A DNA stretch of 64,000 nt from Bacilli bacterium (GTDB lineage Bacteria > Bacillota_I > Bacilli_A > RF39 > UBA660), in the NCBI GenBank assembly GCA_017934595.1, contig JAGBJG010000005.1, positions 1-64,000 on the forward strand, read 5' to 3'. The notes beneath the pieces are model-generated. The model searched no databases. It had not been told where the DNA came from and saw nothing but the letters and a program-made list of their open reading frames with translations. The position numbers and the translations under genes were made by a program. Numbering within the stretch: position 1 is the first letter of the stretch; each line of letters opens with the position of its first letter. Shown piece by piece: positions 26,374 to 40,769 of the stretch.

Positions 26374-27978
26374 ATGATACTACGTAAGCCATATGCTTTT
26401 TTGATTAAAAATTTTAAACTATTTCATTTAATCATGACTATTTTAATGGCCTATGTATTCTATAAAACGTGGACCATATTGTCAGTATTTAATGACTATT
26501 TCGCATCAGGTACTGCTTTAATAGGATCTAATGCATCCGCAACGACATATACTTTTATGCTATTCTTTATTCCGGTATTAATAATAATATTTTCATTAAT
26601 ACTATTTTGGGTAATGGTGGTTAAGAAAAAACCAAGTTCATTATATATAATTACGATTATAATTTATATTTATGCTTTAGCAATGTTTGGTATGGGTAAA
26701 TCCACATTACTAAATATGGAAATAAATATTCTTGATATAAGACTTATCAAGATGACTAGGGATTTAACAACAATAGCTTTTATTCTACAAATATATCCTT
26801 TAGTTAAAAGTTTAGTAAGAGCTGTTGGCTTTGATATTAAACAATTCGATTTTGGTAAAGATTTAGCTGAATTAGAAATTGAAGAAGCTGATAGTGAAGA
26901 ATTTGAAGTAAATGTATCAGTAGATACAAATAAAGTTAAAAGAGGATTTAACTTTAGAAAAAGAGAATTTAGATATCTTTTTGTAGAAAATAAAGTATTA
27001 ATTATATTATCTACTATAGTTATACTAGCTATTATAGGTGGTGTTACTGTTATCCTAATGCTTAGACATGGTGTCATCAAAAATATTGGTGAATCATTTA
27101 CTGTTAGTAGTTTTACTTTCAAAGTAAATAATGCTTATATAACAAGAAAAGATTATAAAGGAAATACATTAAATTTAAATGAAAAAATGTCCTTATTAGT
27201 TATACCTTTTAAAGTTAAAAATAATAGTGATATTGATAAGAGTTTCCTAACAGCTAATATAATGTTAGATATAGGAGATCATAGATTTAGAAATAGTATT
27301 ATATATCGCGATAGTATGTCTGATTTAGGTGTAGTTTATAATGGTGAAAATATTAAATCTAAAACAGAAGAATATAAAACATTTATATTTGAAGTACCAA
27401 CTAACTATTTATCTGATAAAATAGAACTTAAATTTATAACATCAATTAGTACAGAAGGTAAAGATTTAATACCTACATATATAACAGTAAATATAAATCC
27501 TAAAGATTTAGATAGTAAATTAGAAACATTTACTTTAGAAAATGGTAATACAGATTTAAGTAAAACAATACTTAAAAATAGTAATATTACTATCGAAAAT
27601 ACATCTATAGCTAAAAAGTTTAAAATAGATTATAAATATAAAGTAAGTGATACAGAAGCTATAGATTCATATGAATATATTTATGCACCACTAGATACTA
27701 ATGTAGATAAATCCTTACTTAAAATAACAGGTGAATTATCTTTAGGTGAAGGTATTAATATAACAGATTTATATGATTTAATTAATACATATGGATATAT
27801 TAAATATGAATTAAATGGTCAAACTAAAAAATTATATACATTAAATAAAGTAAATCCATCTTACACTAAATCATCTAAGACTTTATATATAGGCGTACCT
27901 AGTGATATGGAAAAAGCAAGTAGTGTATCATTAATTTTAAATATTAGAGGTAAAGAGTATACTTATAAAATTAAGTAA
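26374..27978 (+). CDS. Polytopic membrane protein with large extracytoplasmic domain
   Basis: The 534-residue protein has membrane segments at about residues 17-36, 65-87, 92-110 and 124-150, a cytoplasmic loop rich in Glu and Lys, and a further helix at 210-232. Residues 235-534 then form an extracytoplasmic beta-rich part; its first half (FKVNNAYITRKDYKGNTLNL, VIPFKVKNNSDID) resembles DUF4352-type immunoglobulin-like domains. Its last 15 codons and terminator are duplicated 10.3 kb downstream, flanking the biosynthetic cassette. The gene itself is intact. Function unknown. Confidence 0.65.
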   Translation: MILRKPYAFLIKNFKLFHLIMTILMAYVFYKTWTILSVFNDYFASGTALIGSNASATTYTFMLFFIPVLIIIFSLILFWVMVVKKKPSSLYIITIIIYIYALAMFGMGKSTLLNMEINILDIRLIKMTRDLTTIAFILQIYPLVKSLVRAVGFDIKQFDFGKDLAELEIEEADSEEFEVNVSVDTNKVKRGFNFRKREFRYLFVENKVLIILSTIVILAIIGGVTVILMLRHGVIKNIGESFTVSSFTFKVNNAYITRKDYKGNTLNLNEKMSLLVIPFKVKNNSDIDKSFLTANIMLDIGDHRFRNSIIYRDSMSDLGVVYNGENIKSKTEEYKTFIFEVPTNYLSDKIELKFITSISTEGKDLIPTYITVNINPKDLDSKLETFTLENGNTDLSKTILKNSNITIENTSIAKKFKIDYKYKVSDTEAIDSYEYIYAPLDTNVDKSLLKITGELSLGEGINITDLYDLINTYGYIKYELNGQTKKLYTLNKVNPSYTKSSKTLYIGVPSDMEKASSVSLILNIRGKEYTYKIK

Positions 27979-27992
27979 TACTCTTTTACTTT
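27931..27992 (+). repeat. 62-bp direct repeat, left copy (cassette 1)
   Basis: The sequence is identical over 62 bp with 38206-38267. It contains the last 15 codons, the stop and the terminator of the membrane protein gene at 26374. The two copies enclose 10.2 kb with different codon use. Confidence 0.95.
27952..27991 (+). terminator. Terminator of the 534-aa membrane protein gene
   Basis: AAAGAGTA pairs with TACTCTTT outside and ACTTA with TAAGT inside; T residues follow. The stem overlaps the last codons and is duplicated at 38227-38266. Confidence 0.7.
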
Positions 27993-28092: not shown

Positions 28093-28121
28093 TTGACATA
28101 TATATAAAAAAGGTTTAAAAT
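28093..28121 (+). promoter_or_regulatory. Promoter of the biosynthetic cassette
   Basis: A consensus TTGACA and TAAAAT are separated by 17 bp. Transcription would start about 28 bp before the leader peptide at 28157. Confidence 0.7.
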
Positions 28122-28156: not shown

Positions 28157-28228
28157 ATGAAAAAAGATTTATTATTAAACTCATACTTTAATTCTACAGT
28201 TTCTTTGCGCGCCGTAATTCCTGGTTAG
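28157..28228 (+). CDS. Leader peptide, 23 aa, of the cassette operon
   Basis: A GGGGACTGG site precedes ATG at 28157. The frame codes for 23 residues beginning MKKDLLLNSYFNSTVSLR and ending AVIPG, then TAG. Its last codons form the 5' arm of a GC-rich terminator hairpin (28209-28246), so ribosome position on this frame would decide whether the hairpin forms. The layout matches peptide leaders that control antibiotic-resistance genes, including ABC-F genes. A ribosomally made precursor peptide is an alternative, but no leader/core pattern is evident and the hairpin overlap favours attenuation. Confidence 0.6.
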   Translation: MKKDLLLNSYFNSTVSLRAVIPG

Positions 28229-28246
28229 GTTTTATGGCGCTTTTTT
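28209..28246 (+). terminator. Attenuator hairpin before the cassette structural genes
   Basis: GCGCCGTAA (28209-28217) pairs with TTATGGCGC (28232-28240), nine pairs with one G-T, followed by six T residues. The loop contains the leader stop codon. The first structural gene starts 19 bp later, so read-through is needed for expression from the upstream promoter. Confidence 0.75.
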
Positions 28247-28264
28247 GTATGTGGAGGTGTTTTT

Positions 28265-29569
28265 ATGAAAAGTATATATGCAATTCCAACTCATCGACCA
28301 ATCGATGAAAATAATTTGAGAGATTATTTTAGTGAAGTTGATTATGCAATTCAAATAATGAAAAAGGATTGTATGCTGATTTTTTTTGAAGATACTGAGG
28401 AGCATGTTAATGAAGCTAATATACTTAGAATTAGTAGCATGTTTCCTAAAGTAAAATATATGTATATTAATAGAAATGATACAAGAAAAATATATGACTT
28501 TATATATATGAGTTTATCTTCGAAAGCCCAAACTGTATTTAAGGAAATATATCCTAATGCCAATGTTAATTATGGCAATATATTTAATAGAATATTTATT
28601 TTCGCAATTTTGCTTGGTGCAGATATAATTGTTAGACGTGATTCGGATGTGTTGATTGAAGAAAAAGATGGTATAAAATTATATCCAATAATTAATGAAT
28701 TAAATTTATTGGGTACAAAAGATAATTTGAAAACCATTTATATTTGTGGCGGTGGTTATAAGGGAACCTATGATTTGGATATAGATAGTTTAATAAGAGA
28801 TAATGGCAAAGATTACTCTTTAGTTAGGAAGTTGTTTGTGTGTATGTCCATACCAGAGGAACACCATGATGATATAATAAACGAGGAAATACTTAATAAT
28901 AACATTCCTTTTGAAAAAGATATTATTGATTATGATTCTAAGTCATATCCAGAATGTGGAAATATTGGCTTATATAAACTATTTCACTATTTTCCTTCAC
29001 CATGTCAAGATTTTATACTTGGATCAGATTACTTTTTTATAGATGTAGCGGTGCATTCTAACCTTGATGTTGTTTATCATAATAGGGCAGTTATACATAA
29101 ACATACAAGAGATCGAAAAAGCGAGTTTTCAAAAGTATACAATTATTGGCGAGGCCTTTTGATGCTGATTGATTCACAAATATTTTATAGAGGATTTTAT
29201 GAAAAATATTTAGATAATAATGACTATAATGATTTCGCGGTAATTGATAATAATGTTCTTCGTATGACTAATGATATGAAACGTGAATTAGCGCTTTTTA
29301 AAACGAAAAATAGTGAAAGAATAGTGAAATTAAATAATTTTATTGAAGTTTTACAAGAATCTAATGATGCTGATGTCCGAAAGATATCTTCGATGCTAGA
29401 AAAAGAATATGATAATATTATTAAATATACAAATCAATCTATTGAATTGCATATTAAACTTATAAAATATTGGAATGAAATATGTAAAGCTACGATTTAT
29501 ACTGCATCGCGTGATGACGTTAAAGAATATCTTGAAAATAGAATATTTGGTGGTGACATTGATGAATAA
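28265..29569 (+). CDS. GT-A glycosyltransferase-like protein of the biosynthetic cassette
   Basis: The 434-residue soluble protein starts MKSIYAIPTHRP and has an alpha/beta first half. IFAILLGADIIVRRDSDVLI near residue 110-130 looks like the nucleotide-sugar and metal-binding DxD region of GT-A enzymes (RDSD). A later LGSDYFFIDVAVHSNLDVVY and YHNRAVIHKHTRDRKSEF add His-rich segments. The last 130 residues are helical. It could transfer a sugar or act on an amino-acid substrate; I cannot fix the family. It is the first structural gene after the attenuator and overlaps the AMP-ligase start. Confidence 0.5.
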   Translation: MKSIYAIPTHRPIDENNLRDYFSEVDYAIQIMKKDCMLIFFEDTEEHVNEANILRISSMFPKVKYMYINRNDTRKIYDFIYMSLSSKAQTVFKEIYPNANVNYGNIFNRIFIFAILLGADIIVRRDSDVLIEEKDGIKLYPIINELNLLGTKDNLKTIYICGGGYKGTYDLDIDSLIRDNGKDYSLVRKLFVCMSIPEEHHDDIINEEILNNNIPFEKDIIDYDSKSYPECGNIGLYKLFHYFPSPCQDFILGSDYFFIDVAVHSNLDVVYHNRAVIHKHTRDRKSEFSKVYNYWRGLLMLIDSQIFYRGFYEKYLDNNDYNDFAVIDNNVLRMTNDMKRELALFKTKNSERIVKLNNFIEVLQESNDADVRKISSMLEKEYDNIIKYTNQSIELHIKLIKYWNEICKATIYTASRDDVKEYLENRIFGGDIDE

Positions 29570-30911
29570 TGACGAATATATAAAAATTAAGGAACACGCA
29601 AAAGAAATTTTTTCTGACGATTCACATAAAAGTAGAGTCCGAGAAATAATGAAAAATAGTTGGGATAATATTAGAAATTTTCCATATAGAGATTTTGATG
29701 ATATAAAAAAGTGGCAATTAGAACGAATTTCTTATTTGGTAGATTATGCGTATAAAAACATACCATTGTATAAGAAAAAATACGACGCAGTTGGTTATAA
29801 AGTTGGAAGTATAAAAACTTGGGACGATTATGATAAACTGCCAATATTATATAAGGAAGAATTAATAGCTGGATTCCCTAATGAAATAGTGAAGGAAATA
29901 GATGATTTCAATTTGTCAACTAGGAGTTCTGGTTCGAGTGGAAAATTTTTAACGTTGGCTGTATCTTTGGATGCTATATATAATGATACTATTCAGGGTT
30001 ACCGTCAGTATTATTTACAATCTGGTAATAAATATACTAAAGAAGATATGGTGTTATATATATATACTTGTCCGTGGTGGATAGAGAATCTTGATAGCGA
30101 ATATCAAACTAGTTTCTTGCCAACAACAACTCCTGTTGATGATGCTGTAAAATACATTAAGCAGATTAGACCGAGTATAATATCCACATATCCTACTTAT
30201 TTAAATAAGCTTTCGATGACTGGTATAAAATTAAGTGATTATGGTGTTAAAGTTGTTATAGTACATTCTGAACAATCTAATGCTATGCAGCGTGATATGC
30301 TATCTAAGGCATTGGGGGTTCCTGTGTTGGATGAATATAGTAGTGAAGAACTTACTAGAATAGCTCTTGAGTGTCCAAATCATACATACCATCTAGAGGA
30401 AGATGCATGCTATATTGAAATTATTAATCCTGAAACTTTAAAAAGATGTGATTATGGTAAGGAAGGCGTAGTTGTTGGTACAAACTTATTAAATACTGCT
30501 ACACCTATAATAAAGTATTGGCAAGGTGATTTAGCTGTTATAGATGAACCGATTGATTGTGAATGTCATAATAATTGTCGCGTTTTAAAAGAAATTAAAG
30601 GGAGATATATGGACAGTATTAAGACGCCGACAGGAGAAATTATACCAGCATCTGCTTTTATGGATATTGCGTATAATTGGTTTTTAGTATTTAATATTCC
30701 GATCCATGGGTTGCGATATCAATTTGTTCAAGAAAATACTAGAGAATTAAATTTGTATTTAATTAAGGGATTGTTTGATATAGATTTGGAAAAGATTAAA
30801 GAGAGTGTTTATTTGTTGATCCCTAAAACTATGAAATTAAATATAATGATAGTAAATGAATTCCCAATAACCATAGGAAATAAGTATAGACCTGTTATTT
30901 CCAAAATATAA
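29562..30911 (+). CDS. Adenylate-forming ligase, PaaK/CapK (phenylacetate-CoA ligase-like) family
   Basis: The ATG at 29562 overlaps the preceding stop, giving 449 residues. The N-terminal WQLERISYLVDYAYKNIPLY is typical of the CapK/PaaK family. TRSSGSSGKF near residue 119 is the phosphate-binding loop (SSGTTG in relatives), DEYSSEE near 257 is the motif A5 acid, and TPIIKYWQGDLAVID near 315 holds the adenylate-binding aspartate. CECHNNCRVL may bind a metal, as in F390-synthetase-type members. It probably activates a carboxylic or amino acid as the adenylate for amide or thioester formation in the cassette pathway. Confidence 0.8.
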   Translation: MNNDEYIKIKEHAKEIFSDDSHKSRVREIMKNSWDNIRNFPYRDFDDIKKWQLERISYLVDYAYKNIPLYKKKYDAVGYKVGSIKTWDDYDKLPILYKEELIAGFPNEIVKEIDDFNLSTRSSGSSGKFLTLAVSLDAIYNDTIQGYRQYYLQSGNKYTKEDMVLYIYTCPWWIENLDSEYQTSFLPTTTPVDDAVKYIKQIRPSIISTYPTYLNKLSMTGIKLSDYGVKVVIVHSEQSNAMQRDMLSKALGVPVLDEYSSEELTRIALECPNHTYHLEEDACYIEIINPETLKRCDYGKEGVVVGTNLLNTATPIIKYWQGDLAVIDEPIDCECHNNCRVLKEIKGRYMDSIKTPTGEIIPASAFMDIAYNWFLVFNIPIHGLRYQFVQENTRELNLYLIKGLFDIDLEKIKESVYLLIPKTMKLNIMIVNEFPITIGNKYRPVISKI

Positions 30912-30921
30912 GGAGGATTTT

Positions 30922-32115
30922 ATGAATGAGGTTGCAAAAAATATCGTTGAAACTAAAATAAAAAAATTGCGTTCTGGTACGCCAATTAAGGAATTTAACA
31001 ATAATAAATTAGCTGAAGTAGAAATTAATAAATTTTTTTATAATGGTAGTATGATAGATCGCGTTATGGTAGTTTTAAGAGCGAACGGCTGTGAACATTA
31101 TAAAACGAATGGTGGATGTTCAATGTGTGCACATTATAATGGTACTTCAATAAATAATATCGTAACAGACAGAAATTATAAAAAACAGTGGGACAGTGTT
31201 TTAGATGGCACTGGTATTGAAAAAAAAGATTATAATTTCAATATTGATAATTTTCCCGTTGTTTGTATATATAATCTTGGTAGTTTTCTAAATGTAAATG
31301 AAATTTCACTAGAAGCCGCGAAATATATATTTAGCAAATTAAATGAGCACGCAGGTGTAAAAAAAGCTATTATAGAATCACGTGCAGAATATATCAATGA
31401 CGAAACTATTAATAATATAAAAAGTGTTTATTCTAATACCATTGAAGTTGGTATTGGTGTTGAATCAACTAATAATAAAATAAGGGAATTATGTCATCAT
31501 AAAGGTCTTGATGATTTAAAAATAATCAAAACAGCTGTGGAAATCCTTCATAAATATAATTGCAAGGCATTAGCATATATTAATCTTAAACCTGTATTTT
31601 TAACTGAACAAGAAGCTATAGATGATGCAATCCAAACGTGTCTTGATTGTATAGAGATGGGGTTTGATGCAATTTCAATTGAACCAACATCGTTGCAAGA
31701 GCATTCTTTAGCTAATTATATGTATGAAATAGGTGAATATAGAGTACCATGGCTTTGGAGCATTAGAGATATACTTAATGAGGTTTATAAAAAAACCGGT
31801 TTGCAAAGTTATGATTTTAGAATAGGCGGGTATTTTGATGAGGAAGTATTGAGTGGTAGTCAGGGCGTAGGTTTTGAAGGTAAAAATGAGTTGTTTCCAC
31901 ATTTGACTTCGTCAAATTGTAGTATCTGTACACCTAATTTTGTCAACAAAATAAAAGAATTTAATTGCACGTATGATATAGCGTGTTTAAATGATATTCA
32001 AAAATGCGAACATTGTTATTCAATATGGGAAGAAACTAAAAAAATTAAAGATTCTCGAAAAATTGAACAAAGAATTATTGATGTTTTAGGTGACGATTAT
32101 GCAAATAAAATGTGA
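30922..32115 (+). CDS. Radical SAM enzyme, RaSEA/TIGR01210-like
   Basis: The 397-residue protein has the cluster motif GCEHYKTNGGCSMCAHY with C57, C66 and C69, the unusual CxxYxxxGGCxMC spacing of the archaeosine-synthesis RaSEA/Elp3-like group, not the common CX3CX2C. VGIGVESTNNKIRELCHHKG matches the SAM-binding strand of that group. The C-terminal 70 residues add six cysteines (SNCSIC, FNCTYDIAC, KCEHC), likely a second metal site. In archaea RaSEA cleaves a lysine adduct on tRNA. Here, inside an amino-acid-type pathway, it more likely acts on a small molecule. It overlaps the next gene. Confidence 0.75.
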   Translation: MNEVAKNIVETKIKKLRSGTPIKEFNNNKLAEVEINKFFYNGSMIDRVMVVLRANGCEHYKTNGGCSMCAHYNGTSINNIVTDRNYKKQWDSVLDGTGIEKKDYNFNIDNFPVVCIYNLGSFLNVNEISLEAAKYIFSKLNEHAGVKKAIIESRAEYINDETINNIKSVYSNTIEVGIGVESTNNKIRELCHHKGLDDLKIIKTAVEILHKYNCKALAYINLKPVFLTEQEAIDDAIQTCLDCIEMGFDAISIEPTSLQEHSLANYMYEIGEYRVPWLWSIRDILNEVYKKTGLQSYDFRIGGYFDEEVLSGSQGVGFEGKNELFPHLTSSNCSICTPNFVNKIKEFNCTYDIACLNDIQKCEHCYSIWEETKKIKDSRKIEQRIIDVLGDDYANKM

Positions 32116-33187
32116 TGTCTGTGGTAAGATTTTTAAATTCCCGTTTGAAATTAATACTCATAAACATGTTGGTAAGGAATTGAATGGAGTGCCAGTTAAT
32201 TTCTGGACAACTTTGAATGATAAATTTGATTTAATTATTGATGATAATATGAAGGGCGTTTTTAGATACAAAGATTTATATAAAAAAACAAAAAAAAATA
32301 TTAGCCTTGATGAGGGAAATACTCCATTAATAAAAGTATTAGATAATTTATATATTAAGGATGAAAGCGTTAATCCTACTGGAAGTTTTAAAGATCGTGG
32401 AATGCCGTTTTTGATGAATGAGGTGCTAAATCATAATAAGAGTAGCATCGCGATATGTTCCACTGGGAATGCTGCAATATCATTAATTAAATATGCCAAA
32501 TTATACGGAATAGAGTCAATAGTTTTTTTGCCACAAGATATAGATTTTAAAAAGAAAAATGAATTAACTGGTGCAACTCAAATAGTGTATTCTGATGATA
32601 TTATAAAATGTTTTGAAGATTTCATGATATATTGTGATAATAATCCAGATATATTTAACGGATTTTTGTCTACAAATATATCATACATGATTGGATTGGA
32701 AACTATATCATACGAAATATTTGAGCAACTCAATTTTAATGTACCAAACTATATATTTATTCCGTGCGCGAGTGGTGGAAATGTAGTTTCACAATATAAT
32801 GCATGGAAAAAATTATATGATAACAATATGATTGACAAAATGCCTAAGTTTGTGATAGTTCAAATCGATGGTGGCAATCCGATTGAACAAGGTTATAATA
32901 AAAAGAATAGTGAATCACTTTTTGTAATAAACAATCCGGTTCCTTCAAAAACTATATTATCAACGGACACTTGCTTTAATTATTTTAAGATTTACGAAAT
33001 AATTGATAGCGGTTATGGATTTACTGTTTCAATAGATGATAAAGATATTGATAATATTGCTAAAACGTTCAAAGATAAATATGATTATACTTCTTTAGCT
33101 GTTTTGGCGGCATATGAAAAATATAAAAAAAATATGCGAGTGAATGAAATTTCTGTTGCAATTATTACTGCAAAGAATAGGAAGTGA
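32099..33187 (+). CDS. PLP-dependent threonine-synthase-like enzyme
   Basis: The ATG at 32099 after AGGTGAC gives 362 residues. The fold-type II PLP lysine is in NPTGSFKDRG near residue 97. CSTGNAAISLIKYAKLYGI, PCASGGNVV and SLAVLAAYEKYKK continue the threonine synthase pattern. The N-terminal CDVC is a partial zinc ribbon as in some threonine synthases. Such enzymes do beta- or gamma-replacement and elimination on phospho- or acyl-activated amino acids. In this cassette it may make a non-proteinogenic amino acid such as a diamino acid. Overlaps both neighbours. Confidence 0.8.
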   Translation: MQIKCDVCGKIFKFPFEINTHKHVGKELNGVPVNFWTTLNDKFDLIIDDNMKGVFRYKDLYKKTKKNISLDEGNTPLIKVLDNLYIKDESVNPTGSFKDRGMPFLMNEVLNHNKSSIAICSTGNAAISLIKYAKLYGIESIVFLPQDIDFKKKNELTGATQIVYSDDIIKCFEDFMIYCDNNPDIFNGFLSTNISYMIGLETISYEIFEQLNFNVPNYIFIPCASGGNVVSQYNAWKKLYDNNMIDKMPKFVIVQIDGGNPIEQGYNKKNSESLFVINNPVPSKTILSTDTCFNYFKIYEIIDSGYGFTVSIDDKDIDNIAKTFKDKYDYTSLAVLAAYEKYKKNMRVNEISVAIITAKNRK

Positions 33188-33192
33188 TAATT

Positions 33193-34440
33193 ATGGATGA
33201 AAAATATAGTATGTCATGGTATTTTGATAGAGGTTTAGAAAAAAAAGCGCTGTTGCTAGATGCGTCAAATCTTGATTGGTTTGAATTTCCACTTTTTTCA
33301 AATATACGAAATGAAATATATAGAACTCTAGAGGACCCTAGTGAAGATATGGACTGGGGGTATAGTTATCCTGGCGGGAAGACAAAATTCCGAGAGCTGA
33401 TTGCTGAACATGAAAGTAATATAGAAGGTGTAAATTTTGCTAAACAAGATGTAATTATTGGCGGGAATGGAGTTACTGGAGTTTTAAATTTTGTTGCTCA
33501 ATTTCTGAAAAAAAAATCTTTAGTTTTAAATAAAAAAAGTATTTTATATCCTGTTCCAGCGTATGCAGGACTGTTGAAAAGTATTCAGTACTATGATTTG
33601 AATGCAATTAAAATTGAAATGAAAAGAGAAAATAATTATTGTTTAACATACGATGACGTGGTTAAAAATTATAATGAAGATGTTCTAGCAATATTAATAA
33701 CTAATCCAGGCAATCCATCATGTTGCTATATTGAAAATGAAAATTTTTGTAACATACTTAATTTTTGTAAAGAGAAAGGTATTTATATAATAATTGATGC
33801 TATATTTGAGGAATCTCCTGGCAGCGAGAATAAGTATTCAAAATCTTTTGGTTTAATTGATTGCTACGATAAATTAATTAAAATTAAGGGATTTAGCAAG
33901 GATATACCACAATTAAGTGACTTAAGACTTGGATGGAGTATAACAAAAAATGTAGATTTTAATAATGAAATGTTGGAACTGGGAGAAATTACAAATTATT
34001 CAAATTCTACTTTTTTAGAAGCACTTGGTATGGCTGAAATGGAGACTAGAGTTGCAATTGATAATCGTGTAAATAACGACAAAATATCAACTTATTTAAG
34101 TGAAAAAGAAATATACCATTATAAAATAAAAGAAAGTATTGATAAACTAGTTAATATAGTTAATGATAGTTGTGTATTTGATGACGTTATAATTCCAGAA
34201 GCCGGCAATATATTATTTATAAAAGTAAATGAAAAATGCTGCCATAAAAGAATGATAAATACTTCTCATGACCTGTTTGTCTATATTTTAGAAAAGGCTA
34301 ATATTCTTGTAACACCAGGGCATGTGTTTGGATTAAATCCATCCCAAATGTGGTTTAGAATAACTATTTCAAGAAGTATTGAACAATTAATTTGTGGCAT
34401 TAAGAAGATAGAAGAAATCTTAGGTGATATTGATGAATGA
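33193..34440 (+). CDS. PLP-dependent class I/II aminotransferase
   Basis: The ATG at 33193 follows AGGAAGTGAT, giving 415 residues. WGYSYPGGKTKFRELIAEH, NGVTGVLNFVA, LITNPGNPS near residue 172 and KIKGFSKD with the PLP lysine near 235 mark the fold-type I aminotransferase family; RLGW and WFRITIS are the substrate-side arginine regions. This fold also includes cyclases and lyases of natural-product pathways (for example capreomycidine synthase), so the reaction is open. It overlaps the preceding and following genes. Confidence 0.8.
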   Translation: MDEKYSMSWYFDRGLEKKALLLDASNLDWFEFPLFSNIRNEIYRTLEDPSEDMDWGYSYPGGKTKFRELIAEHESNIEGVNFAKQDVIIGGNGVTGVLNFVAQFLKKKSLVLNKKSILYPVPAYAGLLKSIQYYDLNAIKIEMKRENNYCLTYDDVVKNYNEDVLAILITNPGNPSCCYIENENFCNILNFCKEKGIYIIIDAIFEESPGSENKYSKSFGLIDCYDKLIKIKGFSKDIPQLSDLRLGWSITKNVDFNNEMLELGEITNYSNSTFLEALGMAEMETRVAIDNRVNNDKISTYLSEKEIYHYKIKESIDKLVNIVNDSCVFDDVIIPEAGNILFIKVNEKCCHKRMINTSHDLFVYILEKANILVTPGHVFGLNPSQMWFRITISRSIEQLICGIKKIEEILGDIDE

Positions 34441-35656
34441 TTTAATTGAACAAAAAATTAGAGAGATATATTCGTTTCAAGAAGTAATTAGTAATCCGAC
34501 ATGTTATCTTTATGATTTAAATGATATTAAAGATAAAATAAGAAATATTGAAAAAAATGCACCATCTAATCTTAGTGTATATTATGCTATGAAAGCTAAT
34601 CCGAATCCTGAGATATTGAAATATATAAAAAAATTTAATTTTGTGCGAGGAATTGAAATTGCATCGCTTGGAGAATTGGAGAAAGCCAAAAAAGTATATA
34701 ATGCTAGTGATATAATATTTACAGGACCTGGAAAAACTTATAAAGAATTAGGCGAAGCGATTGTAAATAACATTAAATTGATAAACTGCGAATCAATTGT
34801 TGAAGCGTATAGGATAAATCAAATTGCGTTTGAAAAAAATATAAAAGTTGATATTTTATTAAGAATAAATACTGATTATTTTATAGATGGCGCTGATGAA
34901 CATATGGCTGGGTGCTCCACTAAAATGGGAATAGATGAAAAGGAATTTGTGAAAATATATCAAGAGATTTTAAATTATGGTAATTTAAATATAAAAGGAA
35001 TTCATGTATTTTCAGCGAGTGGAGTGCTCGAATATACTTACCTCATTAAATATGTAAAATATGTTTTTGATTTAGTGAAAAGGCTTGAATATGCTGGATT
35101 CAATATTGAAATAATTGATTTTGGTGGAGGCATTGGTATTGATTATACTAAACGCAATAGAAAGTTTGATATTACCAGTTATTTTGCTGAATTAAATGAA
35201 TTAATAGATATTTATAAATTTAGAAGTAAAGAGCTAATCCTTGAGCTTGGCAAATATATAGTTGGCGAGTGTGGGTATTATACTACAAAGATTATAGATA
35301 TTAAGAATAATAAAGGACATAGACATATAATAACTGCCGGTGGTGTTAATCATATGCGATTGCCAATCGCTACTGATAGGAAACACCCTGTCTACATCAT
35401 TCATAATAATGAGCCACATATTTGTAAGTATCAAGAAAGCGTAAAAAATGATTTGGTGGATATCGAGGGGCCGCTATGTATGGATGAAGATAAAATTTCA
35501 TGGGATGAGAAGGTTGAATATGCTGATATTGGCGATGTGGTTGTTTTAACACAATCAGGTGCTTATTGTTATACAGCTTCAACGTTATGGTTTTTGAGTC
35601 ATGAAATGCCTAAAGAGTTTATACTTAACGAAAAGGGAGAAATTTATGAAGCATAA
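34433..35656 (+). CDS. PLP-dependent amino-acid decarboxylase (LysA/BtrK-type fold III)
   Basis: The ATG at 34433 overlaps the previous stop, giving 407 residues. YYAMKANPNP near residue 53 has the PLP lysine. GIHVFSASG, DFGGGIGIDY near 228, ELGKYIVGECG and GPLCMDEDKIS follow the alanine-racemase-like barrel and the C-terminal domain of diaminopimelate/ornithine decarboxylases. QSGAYCYT takes the place of the conserved GAY segment. The pathway-specific relatives include ACP-bound glutamate decarboxylases of aminoglycoside clusters, so the substrate may be tethered or free. The ureohydrolase gene begins 11 bp before its end. Confidence 0.8.
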   Translation: MNDLIEQKIREIYSFQEVISNPTCYLYDLNDIKDKIRNIEKNAPSNLSVYYAMKANPNPEILKYIKKFNFVRGIEIASLGELEKAKKVYNASDIIFTGPGKTYKELGEAIVNNIKLINCESIVEAYRINQIAFEKNIKVDILLRINTDYFIDGADEHMAGCSTKMGIDEKEFVKIYQEILNYGNLNIKGIHVFSASGVLEYTYLIKYVKYVFDLVKRLEYAGFNIEIIDFGGGIGIDYTKRNRKFDITSYFAELNELIDIYKFRSKELILELGKYIVGECGYYTTKIIDIKNNKGHRHIITAGGVNHMRLPIATDRKHPVYIIHNNEPHICKYQESVKNDLVDIEGPLCMDEDKISWDEKVEYADIGDVVVLTQSGAYCYTASTLWFLSHEMPKEFILNEKGEIYEA

Positions 35657-36509
35657 TAATACATTTCTTAACGTAGAAAAAAGTAAACATAATTCAAAAT
35701 TTGATGCGACTTTTGTTGGAATTAATTTTTGCTCAGCAAAGTGGTTGCACGGCGTGCAACGTTCGGCAAAAAAAATAAGAAAGCTGTCATACAAATATTC
35801 AAATGCTGATGGAACACAATATCCAATAAAAATCTACAATCCAAATTATGAGTATATCTTACATGGGCTACATATTAATGACTATGGTGATATTAAAATA
35901 TCAAAGTATAGTAAATTTTTTGAAAAATCAAATTTTCCAATTTTTGTTGGTGGCGATCACGCAGCTACTTATTATATATTAAAGAATATTATATCCGATG
36001 ATAATGTAGTAGTTATTCAATTTGATGCGCACAGTGATTACCTAGATGACTTTGAGCATTGCCCGCATGGTTCGGTTATGAAAAAAGTAAACGAATTGAA
36101 TAAAATAAATAAAATTATTCACTGTGGTTTGAGGGGAAATTTAAATACTGGCCCGGGGATAGCTAAATCTATAGAAAATGGCAATGTCGTTATAACTAGA
36201 GATGATCTTAACTTTAATGAGTTAATAAAATATATTGATGAGACAGATAAAATATATATATCAATAGATACTGATTTTTTTGATGTTAGTATAGCGCCCG
36301 GAACTAATTGCCCTGAGCCTAATGGGTTTTTGTACGCTGACTTTTTTGTAATTTTAACTAATTTGTTAAGTAAATTTCATGTTGTAGGAATTGATTTTGT
36401 TGAATATAATCCTAAAAAAGATCCGTCTGATATTACTGGCGTATTATTAACAAATCTCATTATAGAAAGCATCGCAGCTAAAAATAATAGAATAAATAAT
36501 AAATATTAG
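35646..36509 (+). CDS. Ureohydrolase (arginase/agmatinase family)
   Basis: The ATG at 35646 after GGGAGAAATTT gives 287 residues. All manganese ligands are visible: GGDHA near residue 104, DAHSD near 127 and IDTDFFD near 208. The final GIDFVEYNP is the conserved FDVVExxP segment. The family hydrolyses a guanidino group to urea and an amine (arginine, agmatine, proclavaminate precursor). Together with the decarboxylase it suggests an arginine-derived or guanidine-bearing building block. It overlaps the decarboxylase gene by 11 bp. Confidence 0.85.
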   Translation: MKHNNTFLNVEKSKHNSKFDATFVGINFCSAKWLHGVQRSAKKIRKLSYKYSNADGTQYPIKIYNPNYEYILHGLHINDYGDIKISKYSKFFEKSNFPIFVGGDHAATYYILKNIISDDNVVVIQFDAHSDYLDDFEHCPHGSVMKKVNELNKINKIIHCGLRGNLNTGPGIAKSIENGNVVITRDDLNFNELIKYIDETDKIYISIDTDFFDVSIAPGTNCPEPNGFLYADFFVILTNLLSKFHVVGIDFVEYNPKKDPSDITGVLLTNLIIESIAAKNNRINNKY

Positions 36510-36559
36510 TTTGTCATTTTTTAAAAAACATTATATAATATCCGAAAGGGAGTGATAAT

Positions 36560-38209
36560 ATGGTGGAAATTAGTTTAAATGATATTAAGAAGAGTTTTGG
36601 TTTTAATAACGTTTTAGATGGCTTTGATTTGGAAGTTAATACTAATGATAGAATCGCTATAGTAGGTAAAAATGGCGCAGGGAAGACTACTTTATTTAAA
36701 ATAATTACAGGCAGTGAGACTGTGAATTCTGGTATTGTTAGTATCAGGAAAGGAAGTAAAATTGGTTTCTTGGAACAAATACCTACAGAGTATGATTCTA
36801 ATTTAACAGTTAATGATGTTCTAATGTCTGCATTTAATGAATTGATTTTGGTGTATGAAGAAATGCAAAAATTAGAGAATGAAATGGCGTCTAATTGTTC
36901 TGATATCGATAAAGTTATGGTTAGATATGGTAAGCTTCAAGATGATTTTATAAATAAAGGCGGATATGATATGGACAGTAATCTTTCGAGAATATGTTCA
37001 GCGTTTAATATATCTAGTGATATGCGAAATCAGTTGTATAGTTCCTTAAGTGGTGGCCAAAAAACATTAGTGCATTTTGCTAAATTATTACTAGAACAAC
37101 CTGAAATTTTGCTTTTGGATGAGCCAACTAATCATTTAGATATAAAAACCATAGAGTGGCTAGAAGAGTTTCTTAAATCGTATAAAGGGACAGTTGTTAT
37201 AAATTCGCATGATAGATATTTTTTGGACAAAGTTGTTAATAAAATAGCGTTATTAGAAAATGGCAAATGTACGTTGTATCATGGTAATTATTCATATTAT
37301 ATCGAAGAACAAGAGAGAGAATTACTTGCGGAATTTCAAAGTTATAAAACACAACAAAAACAAATTCAAGCTATGAAAGATGCAATCAAGAGGTATAGAG
37401 ATTGGGGTAATCGTTCAAGCAATGAAAAATTCTTTAAGGCCGCTGCTAACTTGGAAAAAAGATTAGAACGAATGGAAATTTTAGATAAGCCGGAATTACA
37501 GAAGAAGAAATTGCCATTAAATTTTCAACAAAATGATAGATCTGGAACACGTGTAATTAATTTAGATAGTATTTATATGGCGTACGGTCCCAAAACAATA
37601 TTAAATGGTATTGATTTTGAAATTGAATACGGTGAAAACGTATGTTTACTAGGAGATAATGGTAGTGGGAAATCAACTCTAATAAAAATAATATTGGGCG
37701 ATGTGGTACCAATATCTGGCGCTGTTAATATTGGTACTAATGTGAAGATTGGATATTTACCTCAACAACTATCTTTTGAAGATGAAAATATTAGCATTTT
37801 GGATGAATTTAGGAAACATTTTGAGGGAAATGAAACACAACTTCGTGCCGTATTGGCAAAATTTTTCTTTAACGGTGAAAATGTTTTTAAAAAAGTAAAT
37901 AAATTATCTGGTGGTGAAAAAGTAAGATTAAAACTTGCAGAATTGATTCAAAAGGACGTCAATTTCTTGATTTTGGATGAACCAACTAATCATATTGATA
38001 TTGATACACGTGAAATGTTGGAGGAAGCATTACTTGATTTTAAAGGTACCATCTTATTCGTGTCACATGATAGATATTTTGTTAATAAATTGGCTAAAAA
38101 AATTGTTGAGATTAAGAATGCAAATATAACGACTTATTTAGGTAATTATGATTATTATATAGAGAAAAAAACAGCTATAATTGCGCCGAAAGAATATAAA
38201 AAACGTTAA
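36560..38209 (+). CDS. ABC-F ATPase, probable ribosome-protection (self-resistance) protein
   Basis: The 549-residue soluble protein has two ABC domains without membrane segments. Domain 1 has GKNGAGKTT, LSGGQKTLV and LLLDEPTNHLD; domain 2 has GDNGSGKST, LSGGEKVRL and LILDEPTNHID. The interdomain linker (about 235-320) is long, charged and helical, as needed to reach the ribosome. ABC-F proteins either tune translation or displace antibiotics. As the last gene of an attenuator-controlled biosynthetic operon it is most likely self-protection. The stop codon lies in the first 4 bp of the right direct repeat, so the cassette ends exactly here and borrows the duplicated terminator. Confidence 0.85.
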   Translation: MVEISLNDIKKSFGFNNVLDGFDLEVNTNDRIAIVGKNGAGKTTLFKIITGSETVNSGIVSIRKGSKIGFLEQIPTEYDSNLTVNDVLMSAFNELILVYEEMQKLENEMASNCSDIDKVMVRYGKLQDDFINKGGYDMDSNLSRICSAFNISSDMRNQLYSSLSGGQKTLVHFAKLLLEQPEILLLDEPTNHLDIKTIEWLEEFLKSYKGTVVINSHDRYFLDKVVNKIALLENGKCTLYHGNYSYYIEEQERELLAEFQSYKTQQKQIQAMKDAIKRYRDWGNRSSNEKFFKAAANLEKRLERMEILDKPELQKKKLPLNFQQNDRSGTRVINLDSIYMAYGPKTILNGIDFEIEYGENVCLLGDNGSGKSTLIKIILGDVVPISGAVNIGTNVKIGYLPQQLSFEDENISILDEFRKHFEGNETQLRAVLAKFFFNGENVFKKVNKLSGGEKVRLKLAELIQKDVNFLILDEPTNHIDIDTREMLEEALLDFKGTILFVSHDRYFVNKLAKKIVEIKNANITTYLGNYDYYIEKKTAIIAPKEYKKR

Positions 38210-38267
38210 TTTTAAATATTAGAGGTAAAGAGTATACTTATAAAATTAAGTAATACTCTTTTACTTT
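38206..38267 (+). repeat. 62-bp direct repeat, right copy (cassette 1)
   Basis: Identical to 27931-27992. Here it is only a displaced tail of the membrane protein gene, but its hairpin (38227-38266) sits right after the ABC-F stop codon and would terminate the cassette operon. Confidence 0.95.
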
Positions 38268-38314: not shown

Positions 38315-38944
38315 ATGGAATATGAAGTAAGATACTATTTTCCGAGTGAAAAATTAAATGATATAGTTTTAAAATTAAAAAATATTAAAGAATTAGAAAT
38401 GCATGAAAGAAGTTATGAAAAGACAATGCAATTCGATCATCCAGATGATACTAATAGCTTTTATACAAAAGAAATAGATGGTAGATTTAGAGTAAGAGTA
38501 ACTAAAAATTCGTCTTCATCTAAATGTAAATTAAGCTGGAAAAGAAGAATTAATTCAACTACTTCTACAGATGTTAATAAAGAAGAAGAGGTTGAAGTAA
38601 CAATTAAATATGAAGAATATGATAACTTTATGTTTATTATAAATAATGTTTTAAAAATGAAAGATGTAGAAAGTTATGAAAGATATAGAACTATATTTAC
38701 GAATGAAGATATAGAAATATCTGTTGACGAATACCCATTCGGTATAGCTTTAGAAATAGAAAATAAAAGTAGTGGAAAAGATTCAGAAGTTGTAGTAAGA
38801 AAATGGGTTGAAGTATTAGGGCTAAACATAAAAGATGCGTATAGATTATCATGGGATGATAAGTATAGTGAATTATGCAGAAAACAAGGTATAGAACATT
38901 ATAACCATGTAACTTTTGGTTTGCCTATGCCCAAGGTTGATTAG
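38315..38944 (+). CDS. CYTH-domain protein (triphosphate tunnel metalloenzyme)
   Basis: The 209-residue protein begins MEYEVRYYFP, a variant of the ExExK entry strand of CYTH proteins. GRFRVRVTKN, CKLSWKRRI and KEEEVEVTI continue the tunnel of charged strands, and ALEIENKS supplies the late acidic strand. The family cleaves or binds triphosphates (thiamine triphosphate, polyphosphate, or class IV cyclase). The lysine in ExExK is Arg here. It is the first chromosomal gene after the cassette. Confidence 0.75.
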   Translation: MEYEVRYYFPSEKLNDIVLKLKNIKELEMHERSYEKTMQFDHPDDTNSFYTKEIDGRFRVRVTKNSSSSKCKLSWKRRINSTTSTDVNKEEEVEVTIKYEEYDNFMFIINNVLKMKDVESYERYRTIFTNEDIEISVDEYPFGIALEIENKSSGKDSEVVVRKWVEVLGLNIKDAYRLSWDDKYSELCRKQGIEHYNHVTFGLPMPKVD

Positions 38945-39028
38945 TCCTTTACACTATATGTCAAAACAAAATTAAAAAAATATTGAAAAAATATAAAATG
39001 TGATATAATTATCTTAGAGGTGTTTTTA

Positions 39029-40006
39029 ATGAATAAAAATGAAATGAGTTTAATTAAAAAACTAGCTAAAATTAATGTAACTAGAGGTTTGTTCATTTTT
39101 GCTGGTGCCGCAACTTTAATGGGATGTGGTAGAAATGTTAGTACCGAGCCGGTTGACCCAACTCCAACTCAAACGATTGAAACTACTATTGATGATCCAG
39201 AAGTTACTCCAGAAGTAGATATACCTGTAGTTGAACCTACTACTGATCCAACTACTACTCCAGTAGAAGAAGATAAACCAGAATTTGAAGATGCAACATT
39301 TATTCAAACTGGTGAACATGAATATACAATAAATATAGATTGTCCTGATAATTCAGAAGCTCCAGAGTTAGCTGTGATACCGTCTTTGGATTTGCAAGGC
39401 ATTATTTCTGGCACATCTGGTGTTAACGGTATATCAGAAAATTTAATTCTTGCTGTCTTGACGCATGGTGCCCAAGTTTCTCCTAATAATATAACACAAA
39501 TTAATATAGAAAATTATGGCGATTGTGTAATTACTGAAAATGCTATAGTTGGTGAACGCTCACTTGTTATAACTGATAATCCTTCTGCTTATGGTGATAA
39601 TGTATTTTGCACAACAATCGATGAAATGACTTGTGGTTCAACGTCTGAACTAAATGCAAACGCTATTAGCAGAAGTATGTTCATTCTTCGAGAATCTATT
39701 ACAGCTACAAACGGCAATATAACATGCGGTTTAACTAGATTTAATATGGGTCCTAAAAATTGGGATATAGTTATGAAAGAATGTATGGATGCAACTGGCT
39801 TAACTGAAGAACAAATTTATGCTAACTACGATTCCTCATATGTCTTATCTTATGATACTATGGGATTGGGTGATCCTAACTATGCGAATGATGTATTACA
39901 ATATGTTAATGGTGATATTGTTATTACTGAGTTTGGTAAAAATGGTGGTGCTGTATCTACAACTACATACACAGTTGATAGGGTTAAAACTTACGGTACA
40001 TTATAG
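39029..40006 (+). CDS. Lipoprotein with lysozyme/transglycosylase-like domain
   Basis: The ATG at 39029 after TTAGAGGTG gives 325 residues. The signal ends with lipobox LMGC at about residue 29, followed by a Thr/Pro/Glu-rich linker to about residue 85. The domain from about 110 reads like a lytic transglycosylase (GVNGISENLILAVLTHGAQ, then CGLTRFNMGPKNWDIVMKEC, then GLGDPNYANDVLQYV). The catalytic Glu expected after LAV is not present; HGAQ stands there. It precedes the secretion locus and may be its VirB1-like wall factor, or a non-catalytic binding protein. Confidence 0.55.
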   Translation: MNKNEMSLIKKLAKINVTRGLFIFAGAATLMGCGRNVSTEPVDPTPTQTIETTIDDPEVTPEVDIPVVEPTTDPTTTPVEEDKPEFEDATFIQTGEHEYTINIDCPDNSEAPELAVIPSLDLQGIISGTSGVNGISENLILAVLTHGAQVSPNNITQINIENYGDCVITENAIVGERSLVITDNPSAYGDNVFCTTIDEMTCGSTSELNANAISRSMFILRESITATNGNITCGLTRFNMGPKNWDIVMKECMDATGLTEEQIYANYDSSYVLSYDTMGLGDPNYANDVLQYVNGDIVITEFGKNGGAVSTTTYTVDRVKTYGTL

Positions 40007-40124: not shown

Positions 40125-40769
40125 ATGAAAAAGAAGATAATATTATTAACTTTATTACTTATATTTCCTATATCTGGTAAGGCCTTAGATTGCAGTTATG
40201 CTGAGCAAGCTAGATTAAGAAAAATAGCTTCTAATGTAACTACATCATATGAATATATTGAAAATGGTGAAAACGTAAGCTTTAATATAACATTGACTAA
40301 TATTACTGGCGAGATATATGTTCATGATTATAATAGAAACGTTGATTACAAATATAATGGTTCAAATGAAATTAAAATAACTGGGTATGAGCCTGGAGAA
40401 AATGTTAGATATCAAATATATCCAACTAAAGGTAATTGTACAAGTTCTTATCTAGCTAATAAATATGTCAATGTGCCATACTATAACAGATATTATAAGG
40501 ATCCTTTATGTGAAGGAAAAACTTATAGTATATGTGGTAAATGGCAAAGAGTAACTTTATCGTATGATGAGTTTGTAAAAACTATAAATGATTATGATAG
40601 AAAAAAAGATGAAGGAATAAAAGACGAAACAAATGGAGAAAAAAATAATATATTCGATTTGATTTCAAAATTTATATTTGATTATTATATTTTCATAATA
40701 GCTGGTGGTGCTTTAATATTTGTATTAACTAGTGTTTTGAAAAAGAAAAAATCAAAATATGATTTTTAG
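40125..40769 (+). CDS. Secreted protein with C-terminal membrane anchor, first gene of the secretion locus
   Basis: The ATG follows GGAGGCTAGG. A signal peptide (MKKKIILLTLLLIFPISGKA) is followed by an extracytoplasmic domain of about 150 residues with four cysteines, a charged linker, and a membrane helix at about 183-203 ending KKKKSKYDF. The middle resembles an immunoglobulin-like beta domain (NVSFNITLTNITGEIYVHDY). It could be a surface or pilus-assembly partner. It precedes the giant Cys-rich protein, whose start lies 10 bp after its stop. Family not recognised. Confidence 0.6.
   Translation: MKKKIILLTLLLIFPISGKALDCSYAEQARLRKIASNVTTSYEYIENGENVSFNITLTNITGEIYVHDYNRNVDYKYNGSNEIKITGYEPGENVRYQIYPTKGNCTSSYLANKYVNVPYYNRYYKDPLCEGKTYSICGKWQRVTLSYDEFVKTINDYDRKKDEGIKDETNGEKNNIFDLISKFIFDYYIFIIAGGALIFVLTSVLKKKKSKYDF

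What the first reader, a model, noticed from the sequence alone, without database searches (positions are those of the whole stretch)
28265..38209. Undescribed small-molecule pathway: GT-like, AMP ligase, RaSEA-like radical SAM, three PLP enzymes, ureohydrolase and ABC-F
Eight tightly overlapping genes encode amino-acid tailoring: carboxylate activation, a radical step, threonine-synthase-like replacement, transamination, decarboxylation and guanidine hydrolysis. The set ends with an ABC-F ATPase, known from other pathways as ribosome protection. There are no NRPS, PKS or lanthipeptide enzymes. The product may be a small ribosome-targeting amino acid or guanidine derivative. I know no described cluster with this combination.
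Basis: partly seen in the sequence, partly recalled or inferred. Interest (0 to 1): 0.85.

Follow-up and report, generated by a model that had tools for sequence, protein, structure and literature searches.

The report
Mobile ABC-F-guarded amino-acid biosynthesis cassette
A very small bacterial genome carries a recently inserted 10-kilobase block of eight genes that probably makes an unknown amino-acid-derived compound acting on the ribosome, with its own resistance protein and an on-off leader switch, and three of its enzymes have their only close relatives found here in tiny archaea.

Summary
The eight genes are real and enzymatically as described, except that "GT-like" for the first (DUF6271) is unverified. 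New evidence changes the picture. (1) The cluster is a discrete insert: exact 62-bp direct repeats (27931-27992; 38206-38267) bracket it and were found nowhere else in the genome; in the same-genus genome the flanking pilus genes are adjacent and the cluster is absent. (2) AMP ligase, radical SAM and ThrS-like genes form a three-gene core, in the same order in a Woesearchaeota and an Aenigmatarchaeota MAG (41-52% identity), not found in other genomes sampled. (3) The decarboxylase is closest to SbnH/BtrK, which decarboxylate conjugated amino acids; ThrS, RaSEA, agmatinase and GntC memberships fail. (4) Between a strong promoter and gene 1 lies a 23-codon uORF running into the strongest intrinsic terminator of the window, the architecture of ribosome-sensing attenuators of ABC-F genes. 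(5) The ABC-F ends the cassette, has its own promoter-like site and is the only ABC-F found in the genome; its ribosome-protection class is not proven. Best reading: a mobile, self-protected, possibly autoinduced pathway to a ribosome-targeting amino-acid derivative; product unknown.

The parts
27931..27992 (.). Left 62-bp direct repeat; it is the native in-frame 3' end of the upstream gene 26374-27978 plus its hairpin
   Evidence: 100% identical to right copy; core of the repeat found only at these two places in the genome; C-terminus matches the same-genus ortholog
28093..28121 (+). Promoter TTGACA-17-TAAAAT for the operon
   Evidence: 11 of 12 matches, among the two best + strand sites of the stretch; consensus match only
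28157..28228 (+). uORF / putative leader peptide MKKDLLLNSYFNSTVSLRAVIPG*, preceded by GGGG-type Shine-Dalgarno
   Evidence: sequence; last six codons lie in the 5' arm of the terminator
28209..28247 (+). Intrinsic terminator (attenuator): 9-bp stem + T6, 18 nt before gene 1
   Evidence: -17.6 kcal/mol, strongest of the window, next -9; 0 of 60 random 128-kb sequences reach -14
28265..29569 (+). DUF6271 protein, 434 aa (function unknown; RRDSD motif, GT-A-like by inspection)
   Evidence: PF19787 103 bits; relatives on Apilactobacillus plasmids and in two actinobacteria
29562..30911 (+). PaaK-superfamily AMP-forming carboxylate ligase, 449 aa; core gene 1
   Evidence: PaaK 101 bits, cut-off 646; 49-50% identical to archaeal neighbours of the radical SAM gene
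30922..32115 (+). RaSEA-like radical SAM enzyme, 397 aa; CX8CX2C cluster motif and four further conserved Cys; core gene 2
   Evidence: TIGR01210 199.2 bits; 52% and 46-47% to DPANN proteins; radical SAM fold, no close solved relative
32099..33187 (+). Threonine-synthase-like PLP enzyme (fold II), 362 aa, with N-terminal CxxC/H-K-H stretch; core gene 3
   Evidence: 41% to L006; Arg of the conserved threonine-synthase motif is Tyr
33193..34440 (+). Class I/II aminotransferase-fold PLP enzyme, 415 aa (best model GntC, far below cut-off)
   Evidence: 92 bits, cut-off 415
34433..35656 (+). SbnH/BtrK-type PLP decarboxylase (alanine-racemase fold), 407 aa
   Evidence: SbnH 204 bits, BtrK 152, best DAPDC 139
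35646..36509 (+). Agmatinase-like ureohydrolase, 287 aa; GGDH, DAHSD and DTDFFD metal motifs present
36511..36539 (+). Second promoter-like site TTGTCA-17-TATAAT directly before ABC-F
   Evidence: 11 of 12
36560..38209 (+). ABC-F ATPase, 549 aa; its stop codon lies at the edge of the right repeat
   Evidence: NF000355 467.7 bits, cut-off 380; only ABC-F found in this genome
38206..38267 (.). Right 62-bp direct repeat = duplicated 3' end of the upstream gene

Best explanation
The stretch is a horizontally acquired 10.3-kb biosynthetic cassette that integrated at the 3' end of a pilus-locus gene, duplicating 62 bp of it. Its enzymes build a small, nitrogen-rich amino-acid derivative without NRPS or PKS. 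In the most likely scheme (inferred), the core works like the SbnA/SbnB/ligase logic of diaminopropionate-containing metabolites: the ThrS-like PLP enzyme makes an N-linked amino-acid adduct by replacement on an activated amino acid; the RaSEA-like radical SAM enzyme cleaves the adduct's C-N bond, leaving a new amine; the PaaK-like ligase activates and joins a carboxylate. The SbnH/BtrK-type enzyme then decarboxylates this conjugate, and the agmatinase-like enzyme removes an amidino group as urea; the aminotransferase-fold enzyme and DUF6271 tailor it. The product (inferred) hits the ribosome; the ABC-F protects the maker, and a uORF-terminator leader lets ribosome stalling turn on the whole operon. 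Confidence 0.5 is for a mobile pathway to a ribosome-directed small molecule; the exact chemical scheme alone deserves about 0.15-0.2.
For: Shown: the insert borders (exact 62-bp repeats; core pattern only twice in the genome; empty site in the same-genus genome where the flanking genes are 98 bp apart). Shown: AMP ligase-radical SAM-ThrS order conserved in two archaeal MAGs at 41-52% identity, one on a contig with archaeal-type genes, and no close homolog in 97 relatives, 391 phylum and 287 order genomes. Shown: the decarboxylase ranks SbnH > BtrK > DAPDC, and that clade acts on conjugated amino acids (PMC7857480); near plasmid relatives sit in a NIS siderophore locus and another orphan cluster. 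Literature: RaSEA converts a preQ0-lysine adduct to archaeosine (PMC11298593), which implies C-N cleavage. Shown: the leader hairpin is far beyond chance. Precedent: an ABC-F gene of a biosynthetic cluster controlled by a uORF overlapping a terminator (LmrC, PMC8546547). ABC-F is the last cassette gene, the only one found in the genome, none in the same-genus genome.
Against: No substrate or product is known; the reaction order is inferred. NF000355 does not discriminate, because ABC-Fs of relatives also pass its cut-off, and by raw score the nearest solved ABC-F is EttA. No exporter, carrier protein or regulator protein is in the cassette. The leader rests on one sequence without comparative support, and no clear antiterminator was found. 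The genome bin is 86% complete, so 'only ABC-F' may be wrong. The archaeal core lacks the other five genes, so core and tailoring may be functionally separable.
Confidence: 0.5

Rival explanations
1. Metallophore or opine-like pathway: the SbnH-like decarboxylase, PALP enzyme and ligase make a siderophore-type chelator; the ABC-F is incidental or a general translation factor.
For: Best solved relative of the decarboxylase is SbnH; a near plasmid relative lies in an IucA/IucC siderophore locus.
Against: No NIS synthetase, receptor or transporter in the cassette; ureohydrolase, radical SAM and DUF6271 have no place in known NIS pathways; SbnH K347, H379 and W309 near the citryl group are replaced by E, T and T (one search read with the numbering).
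Confidence: 0.12
2. Surface decoration: DUF6271 as glycosyltransferase and the PaaK/CapK-like ligase add an amino-acid derivative to a glycan or to the neighbouring pilus.
For: PaaK-like relatives occur in archaeal polysaccharide loci; TIGR03099-type decarboxylases are exosortase-associated; the insert lies inside a Tad-type pilus locus.
Against: Position inside the pilus locus is explained by recent insertion; no flippase, polymerase or other glycosyltransferase; closest ligase relatives are in radical SAM/ThrS modules and in a Bartonella ATP-grasp cluster.
Confidence: 0.12
3. RNA or cofactor modification: the RaSEA-like enzyme with AMP ligase and ThrS-like enzyme installs an amidine or amino-acid group on tRNA or a cofactor, and the ABC-F helps altered ribosomes.
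For: RaSEA is a tRNA-modifying enzyme and TIGR01210 scores 199 of 212; DPANN archaea share the core; solved folds nearest to the model include Elp3 and queuine lyase.
Against: No ArcS, TGT or RNA-binding domain in the cassette; decarboxylase, ureohydrolase and ligase act on small molecules; RaSEA-like proteins about 30% identical are found in other archaeal genomes without a close form; the insert is absent from relatives.
Confidence: 0.13
4. Ordinary housekeeping amino-acid or polyamine genes (threonine, lysine, arginine-agmatine-putrescine).
For: Superficial names: threonine synthase, DAP decarboxylase, agmatinase.
Against: All scores below family cut-offs; no homoserine dehydrogenase in this genome or 18 family relatives; active-site motifs altered; whole block absent from relatives.
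Confidence: 0.03

Closest known systems
Staphyloferrin B sbnA/sbnB/sbnH logic (and VioB/VioK diaminopropionate formation)
   Same: PALP enzyme, a step that cleaves a C-N bond to free an amine, a ligase, and an SbnH-type decarboxylase (closest solved relative)
   Different: ThrS-like instead of SbnA, radical SAM instead of the NAD enzyme SbnB, PaaK-like ligase instead of NIS synthetases; ureohydrolase and ABC-F added; similarity of logic only, partly from general knowledge
Lincomycin cluster with ABC-F LmrC and its uORF/terminator attenuator (PMC8546547)
   Same: ABC-F in a biosynthetic cluster and a uORF overlapping a premature terminator
   Different: here the leader precedes the biosynthetic operon itself and the ABC-F has its own promoter-like site; no sequence relation shown; antibiotic response not shown
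RaSEA of archaeosine synthesis (TIGR01210)
   Same: radical SAM family, 199 bits
   Different: below cut-off, no ArcS partner in the cassette; about 30% identity to other archaeal family members versus 52% to the DPANN core enzyme
Three-gene core in Woesearchaeota L006 and Aenigmatarchaeota L007
   Same: AMP ligase, radical SAM, ThrS-like, same order, 41-52% identity
   Different: followed in L006 by a D-Ala-D-Ala-ligase-type ATP-grasp; no decarboxylase, ureohydrolase, DUF6271 or ABC-F within the fetched DNA
Att-flanked elements without integrase (CIME-like)
   Same: exact long direct repeats at the 3' end of a gene, empty site in a relative
   Different: no recombinase identified; mechanism unproven

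Membership tests
RaSEA (TIGR01210) | score at or above the curated cut-off 212.15 | tested here: not met
   199.2 bits
RaSEA (TIGR01210) | works with ArcS and tRNA transglycosylase | not tested
   no ArcS-like gene in the cassette; rest of genome not searched for it
Threonine synthase | score above thrC cut-offs and intact O-phosphohomoserine site | tested here: not met
   85.2 vs 167.1 and 151.5 vs 421; NSVNPxRxxGQKT of all four solved enzymes is STNISYMIGLET here; no homoserine dehydrogenase in genome
Diaminopimelate decarboxylase | score above lysA cut-off | tested here: not met
   215.2 vs 297.9; closer to SbnH and BtrK; C-M-D instead of C-E-T at the cysteine loop
Conjugate-type decarboxylases (SbnH, BtrK, FigC, MccE clade) | closest sequence relatives are clade members | tested here: met
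   SbnH 204, BtrK 152, DAPDC 139 bits; no tree built; substrate not testable
Agmatinase | score above TIGR01230 cut-off | tested here: not met
   109.7 vs 174.3; metal ligand motifs present by inspection
GntC / capreomycidine-type cyclases | score above cut-off | tested here: not met
   92 vs 415
PaaK | score above TIGR02155 cut-off | tested here: not met
   101.1 vs 646.3
Antibiotic-resistance ABC-F | falls in a ribosome-protection subfamily | tested here: inconclusive
   NF000355 467.7 vs 380 but four ABC-Fs of relatives also pass; all named resistance subfamilies below cut-off
EttA / Uup housekeeping ABC-F | score above their cut-offs | tested here: not met
   EttA 408 vs 599, Uup 427 vs 900
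Ribosome-mediated transcription attenuator | promoter, translatable uORF, intrinsic terminator before the gene | tested here: met
Ribosome-mediated transcription attenuator | antibiotic-dependent readthrough | not testable with these tools
   needs Term-seq or a reporter
Integrative element | direct repeats and empty site | tested here: met
Integrative element | own integrase | tested here: not met
   none among the ORFs of the cassette; a serine recombinase lies 18 kb upstream, link unproven

The most novel reading that the evidence does not exclude
A previously unknown class of ribosome-targeting natural product made by a ThrS-like/radical SAM/AMP-ligase core shared between bacteria and DPANN archaea, carried on a mobile cassette whose whole biosynthetic operon is switched by a ribosome-sensing attenuator, so that the product (or a rival's inhibitor) induces its own synthesis at the ribosome.
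Probability: 0.25. Interest if true: 0.85.

Novelty: new variant of a known kind. Interest (0 to 1): 0.62.

Why it matters
Bacteria with 1-Mb genomes are normally thought too reduced for specialised metabolism; an intact, repeat-bracketed eight-gene cassette here is unexpected. The core is a compact uncharacterised enzyme set spanning two domains of life, and would give RaSEA-type radical SAM chemistry a role outside tRNA. A leader in front of the biosynthetic operon, with the ABC-F at its end, makes the idea of ribosome-sensed autoinduction of a pathway directly testable.

Tried and rejected
Housekeeping reading (rejected). Arginine decarboxylase plus agmatinase as a plain putrescine route (decarboxylase goes with SbnH/BtrK). 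DUF6271 as a proven glycosyltransferase (no PDB hit; AlphaFold without alignment failed; no DUF6271 relative in viral contigs). NF000355 as proof of ribosome protection (relatives' ABC-Fs also pass). Streptomyces plasmid clusters pFRL3/5 as relatives of the pathway (radical SAM only 23% identical, P450/SHMT/carbamoyltransferase context). Foldseek of the radical SAM model gave only the general fold (TM about 0.4). Viral scans with the ligase and DUF6271 alignments gave nothing. Aminotransferase search of plasmids gave only weak generic hits. Rfam at E<=1 on the leader: none. Anti-phage library: only generic ATPase hits to the ABC-F. The one genome-contig scan used exact peptide patterns and will have missed relatives. 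Literature searches for a matching cluster found none.
Full report
Eight + strand ORFs lie at 28265-38209 as listed. Domain searches give DUF6271, a PaaK-superfamily ligase, a RaSEA-type radical SAM protein, a threonine-synthase-like PALP enzyme, a class I/II aminotransferase fold, a fold III decarboxylase, an arginase-family hydrolase and an ABC-F ATPase. Apart from broad Pfam domains, DUF6271 and the generic ABC-F model NF000355, no protein reaches the cut-off of a functional NCBIfam family, so none can be given a textbook function. Likely starts and Shine-Dalgarno sites were read from the sequence. GC (27-30%) and GC3 are similar across the block and close to the host.

The block is a discrete insert. 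An exact 62-bp direct repeat lies at 27931-27992 and 38206-38267, 10,275 bp apart. A pattern from its core occurs nowhere else in the genome even with two mismatches and not in five relatives. The left copy is the in-frame 3' end and hairpin of the upstream gene 26374-27978; the right copy begins at the ABC-F stop codon. In the only same-genus genome among the relatives (G001) the ortholog of the upstream gene (51%) is followed after 98 bp by the ortholog of 40125-40769 and then the same pilus genes (DUF5411, RcpC-like, T2SSE-like and others) in the same order. So the cluster is absent there. The two genes after the right repeat (CYTH 38315, lipoprotein-like 39020) are also absent from that site, although the CYTH gene has 57-74% relatives elsewhere in the family. 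This is the anatomy of an integrated element with att-like repeats and no integrase; how it moved is not shown.

The taxonomic pattern agrees. A radical SAM relative is absent from 97 relatives and from 391 genomes of the phylum apart from one weak fragment; a profile search of 288 genomes of the order found only weak generic matches outside the window's genome. The one scan of 84,980 species genomes found close homologs in two archaeal MAGs only: Woesearchaeota (L006, 52%) and Aenigmatarchaeota (L007, 46%). Both have AMP ligase, radical SAM and ThrS-like genes in the same order, with 49-50% and about 41% identity for the ligase and ThrS-like proteins. L006 lies on a contig with archaeal-type genes (RIO-like kinase, KaiC, NFACT), so it is not an obvious binning error; L007 is a 3.7-kb contig and cannot be judged. 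In L006 the trio is followed by a D-Ala-D-Ala-ligase-type ATP-grasp. Of 371 genomes of the Woesearchaeota phylum only that one has the close form; others carry proteins about 30% identical, probably ordinary RaSEA. I call the trio the core. A more distant relative (31%) rides as cargo on a viral contig.

Enzyme by enzyme. The decarboxylase is closest to a solved protein that I identify as SbnH (6knh/6knk; 6knk is named SbnH in PMC7857480; 204 bits) and to BtrK (152), ahead of DAP decarboxylases (139). That clade (SbnH, FigC, AcsE, BtrK, MccE) decarboxylates amino acids carrying a conjugate rather than free polyamine precursors (PMC7857480). SbnH Arg304 is kept, but Lys347, His379 and Trp309, which lie near the citryl group, are Glu, Thr and Thr here (my reading of the alignment with the numbering), so the conjugate is probably not citrate and may be cationic. 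The ThrS-like enzyme keeps the PLP lysine stretch (SFKDRG) but the conserved NSVNPxRxxGQKT of four solved threonine synthases reads STNISYMIGLET, and the genome has no detectable homoserine dehydrogenase; it is unlikely to make threonine. The radical SAM protein has CX8CX2C and four further Cys (C333, C336, C362, C365) conserved with the archaeal proteins; the model is confident (pLDDT 85) and gives the radical SAM fold without a close solved relative. The ureohydrolase scores as agmatinase (109.7) above arginase (58.6), both below cut-off, with metal motifs intact (and sequence).

Mechanism, inferred. RaSEA acts on a lysine adduct (preQ0-Lys) to leave the nitrogen on the scaffold (PMC11298593). 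SbnA/SbnB also build an N-linked amino-acid adduct and then break its C-N bond to leave an amine (established knowledge). I propose the same logic here: ThrS-like adduct formation, radical C-N cleavage, ligation by the AMP ligase, then decarboxylation of the conjugate and amidino removal. The order of steps, the substrates and the roles of the aminotransferase-fold protein and DUF6271 are not shown.

Leader. A TTGACA-17-TAAAAT promoter at 28093-28121 is followed by a short ORF with a Shine-Dalgarno site, 28157-28228, encoding MKKDLLLNSYFNSTVSLRAVIPG. Its last six codons lie in the 5' arm of a 9-bp hairpin followed by T6 at 28209-28247, 18 nt before gene 1. This is the strongest terminator-like structure of the window (-17.6 kcal/mol, next -9.0); none of 60 random 128-kb sequences of the same dinucleotide make-up reached -14. 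The simple scan missed it, probably because of its internal loop and long apical part. A uORF that overlaps a premature terminator controls the ABC-F gene lmrC in the lincomycin producer, where it senses ribosome-bound antibiotic (PMC8546547). Here the leader precedes the biosynthetic operon, while the ABC-F also has a promoter-like site of its own (36511-36539). I found no clear antiterminator, and there is no second sequence to test conservation.

ABC-F. It is the last cassette gene and the only ABC-F above E 1e-50 in the genome; the same-genus genome has none, so it is most simply cargo. It passes NF000355 but so do ABC-Fs of relatives; it fails EttA and Uup cut-offs and all named resistance families. 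Ribosome protection is therefore plausible, not shown.

DUF6271 is rare (1 of 346 genomes of the class, the window's own). Relatives occur on an Apilactobacillus kunkeei plasmid next to two ATP-grasp ligases, a methyltransferase and an aminotransferase, and in Streptomyces filamentosus and Kitasatospora, consistent with a tailoring role in small-molecule clusters.

Verdict: a mobile, probably self-protected pathway of unknown product. The insert, the archaeal core and the leader hairpin are solid; the ribosome target and the chemistry are inference.

Noticed in passing
L064:7022-9868: A viral contig (IMGVR_UViG_3300010381_000010) carries a RaSEA-like radical SAM gene (31% to the window protein) with a LysR-like regulator and a small EamA-type permease-like gene between phage genes: cargo of unknown role.
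   Followed up: partly
L005:8177-18575: An Apilactobacillus kunkeei plasmid (apparently pLPX) holds a DUF6271 gene in an apparent small-molecule cluster (ATP-grasp ligases, methyltransferase, IlvE-like aminotransferase, transketolase pair); the passages found in the describing paper (PMC9648514) discuss only its surface protein.
   Followed up: partly
L073:9980-21188: Geobacillus plasmid pGeo12a: orphan cluster with an SbnH/BtrK-type decarboxylase, QueA-like, two thymidylate-synthase-like, PqqD-like, CYTH and ABC transporter genes.
   Followed up: no
L018:4186-14225: Bartonella kosoyi plasmid pTLV-1: ATP-grasp, PaaK-like ligase (32.5% to the window ligase), enolase-superfamily, aminotransferase, FAD enzyme and MATE exporter: an apparent dipeptide-type cluster.
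   Followed up: no
8939-10207: Large serine recombinase with zinc ribbon about 18 kb upstream of the cassette; no demonstrated link to the 62-bp repeats.
   Followed up: no
38315-40006: CYTH-domain gene and a lipoprotein-like gene directly after the right repeat are also missing from this site in the same-genus genome; the CYTH protein is well conserved in some family members (57-74%) but at other places.
   Followed up: partly
40125-63240: Tad-like pilus locus (RcpC-like, T2SSE) followed by TraG/T4SS coupling-protein genes.
   Followed up: no
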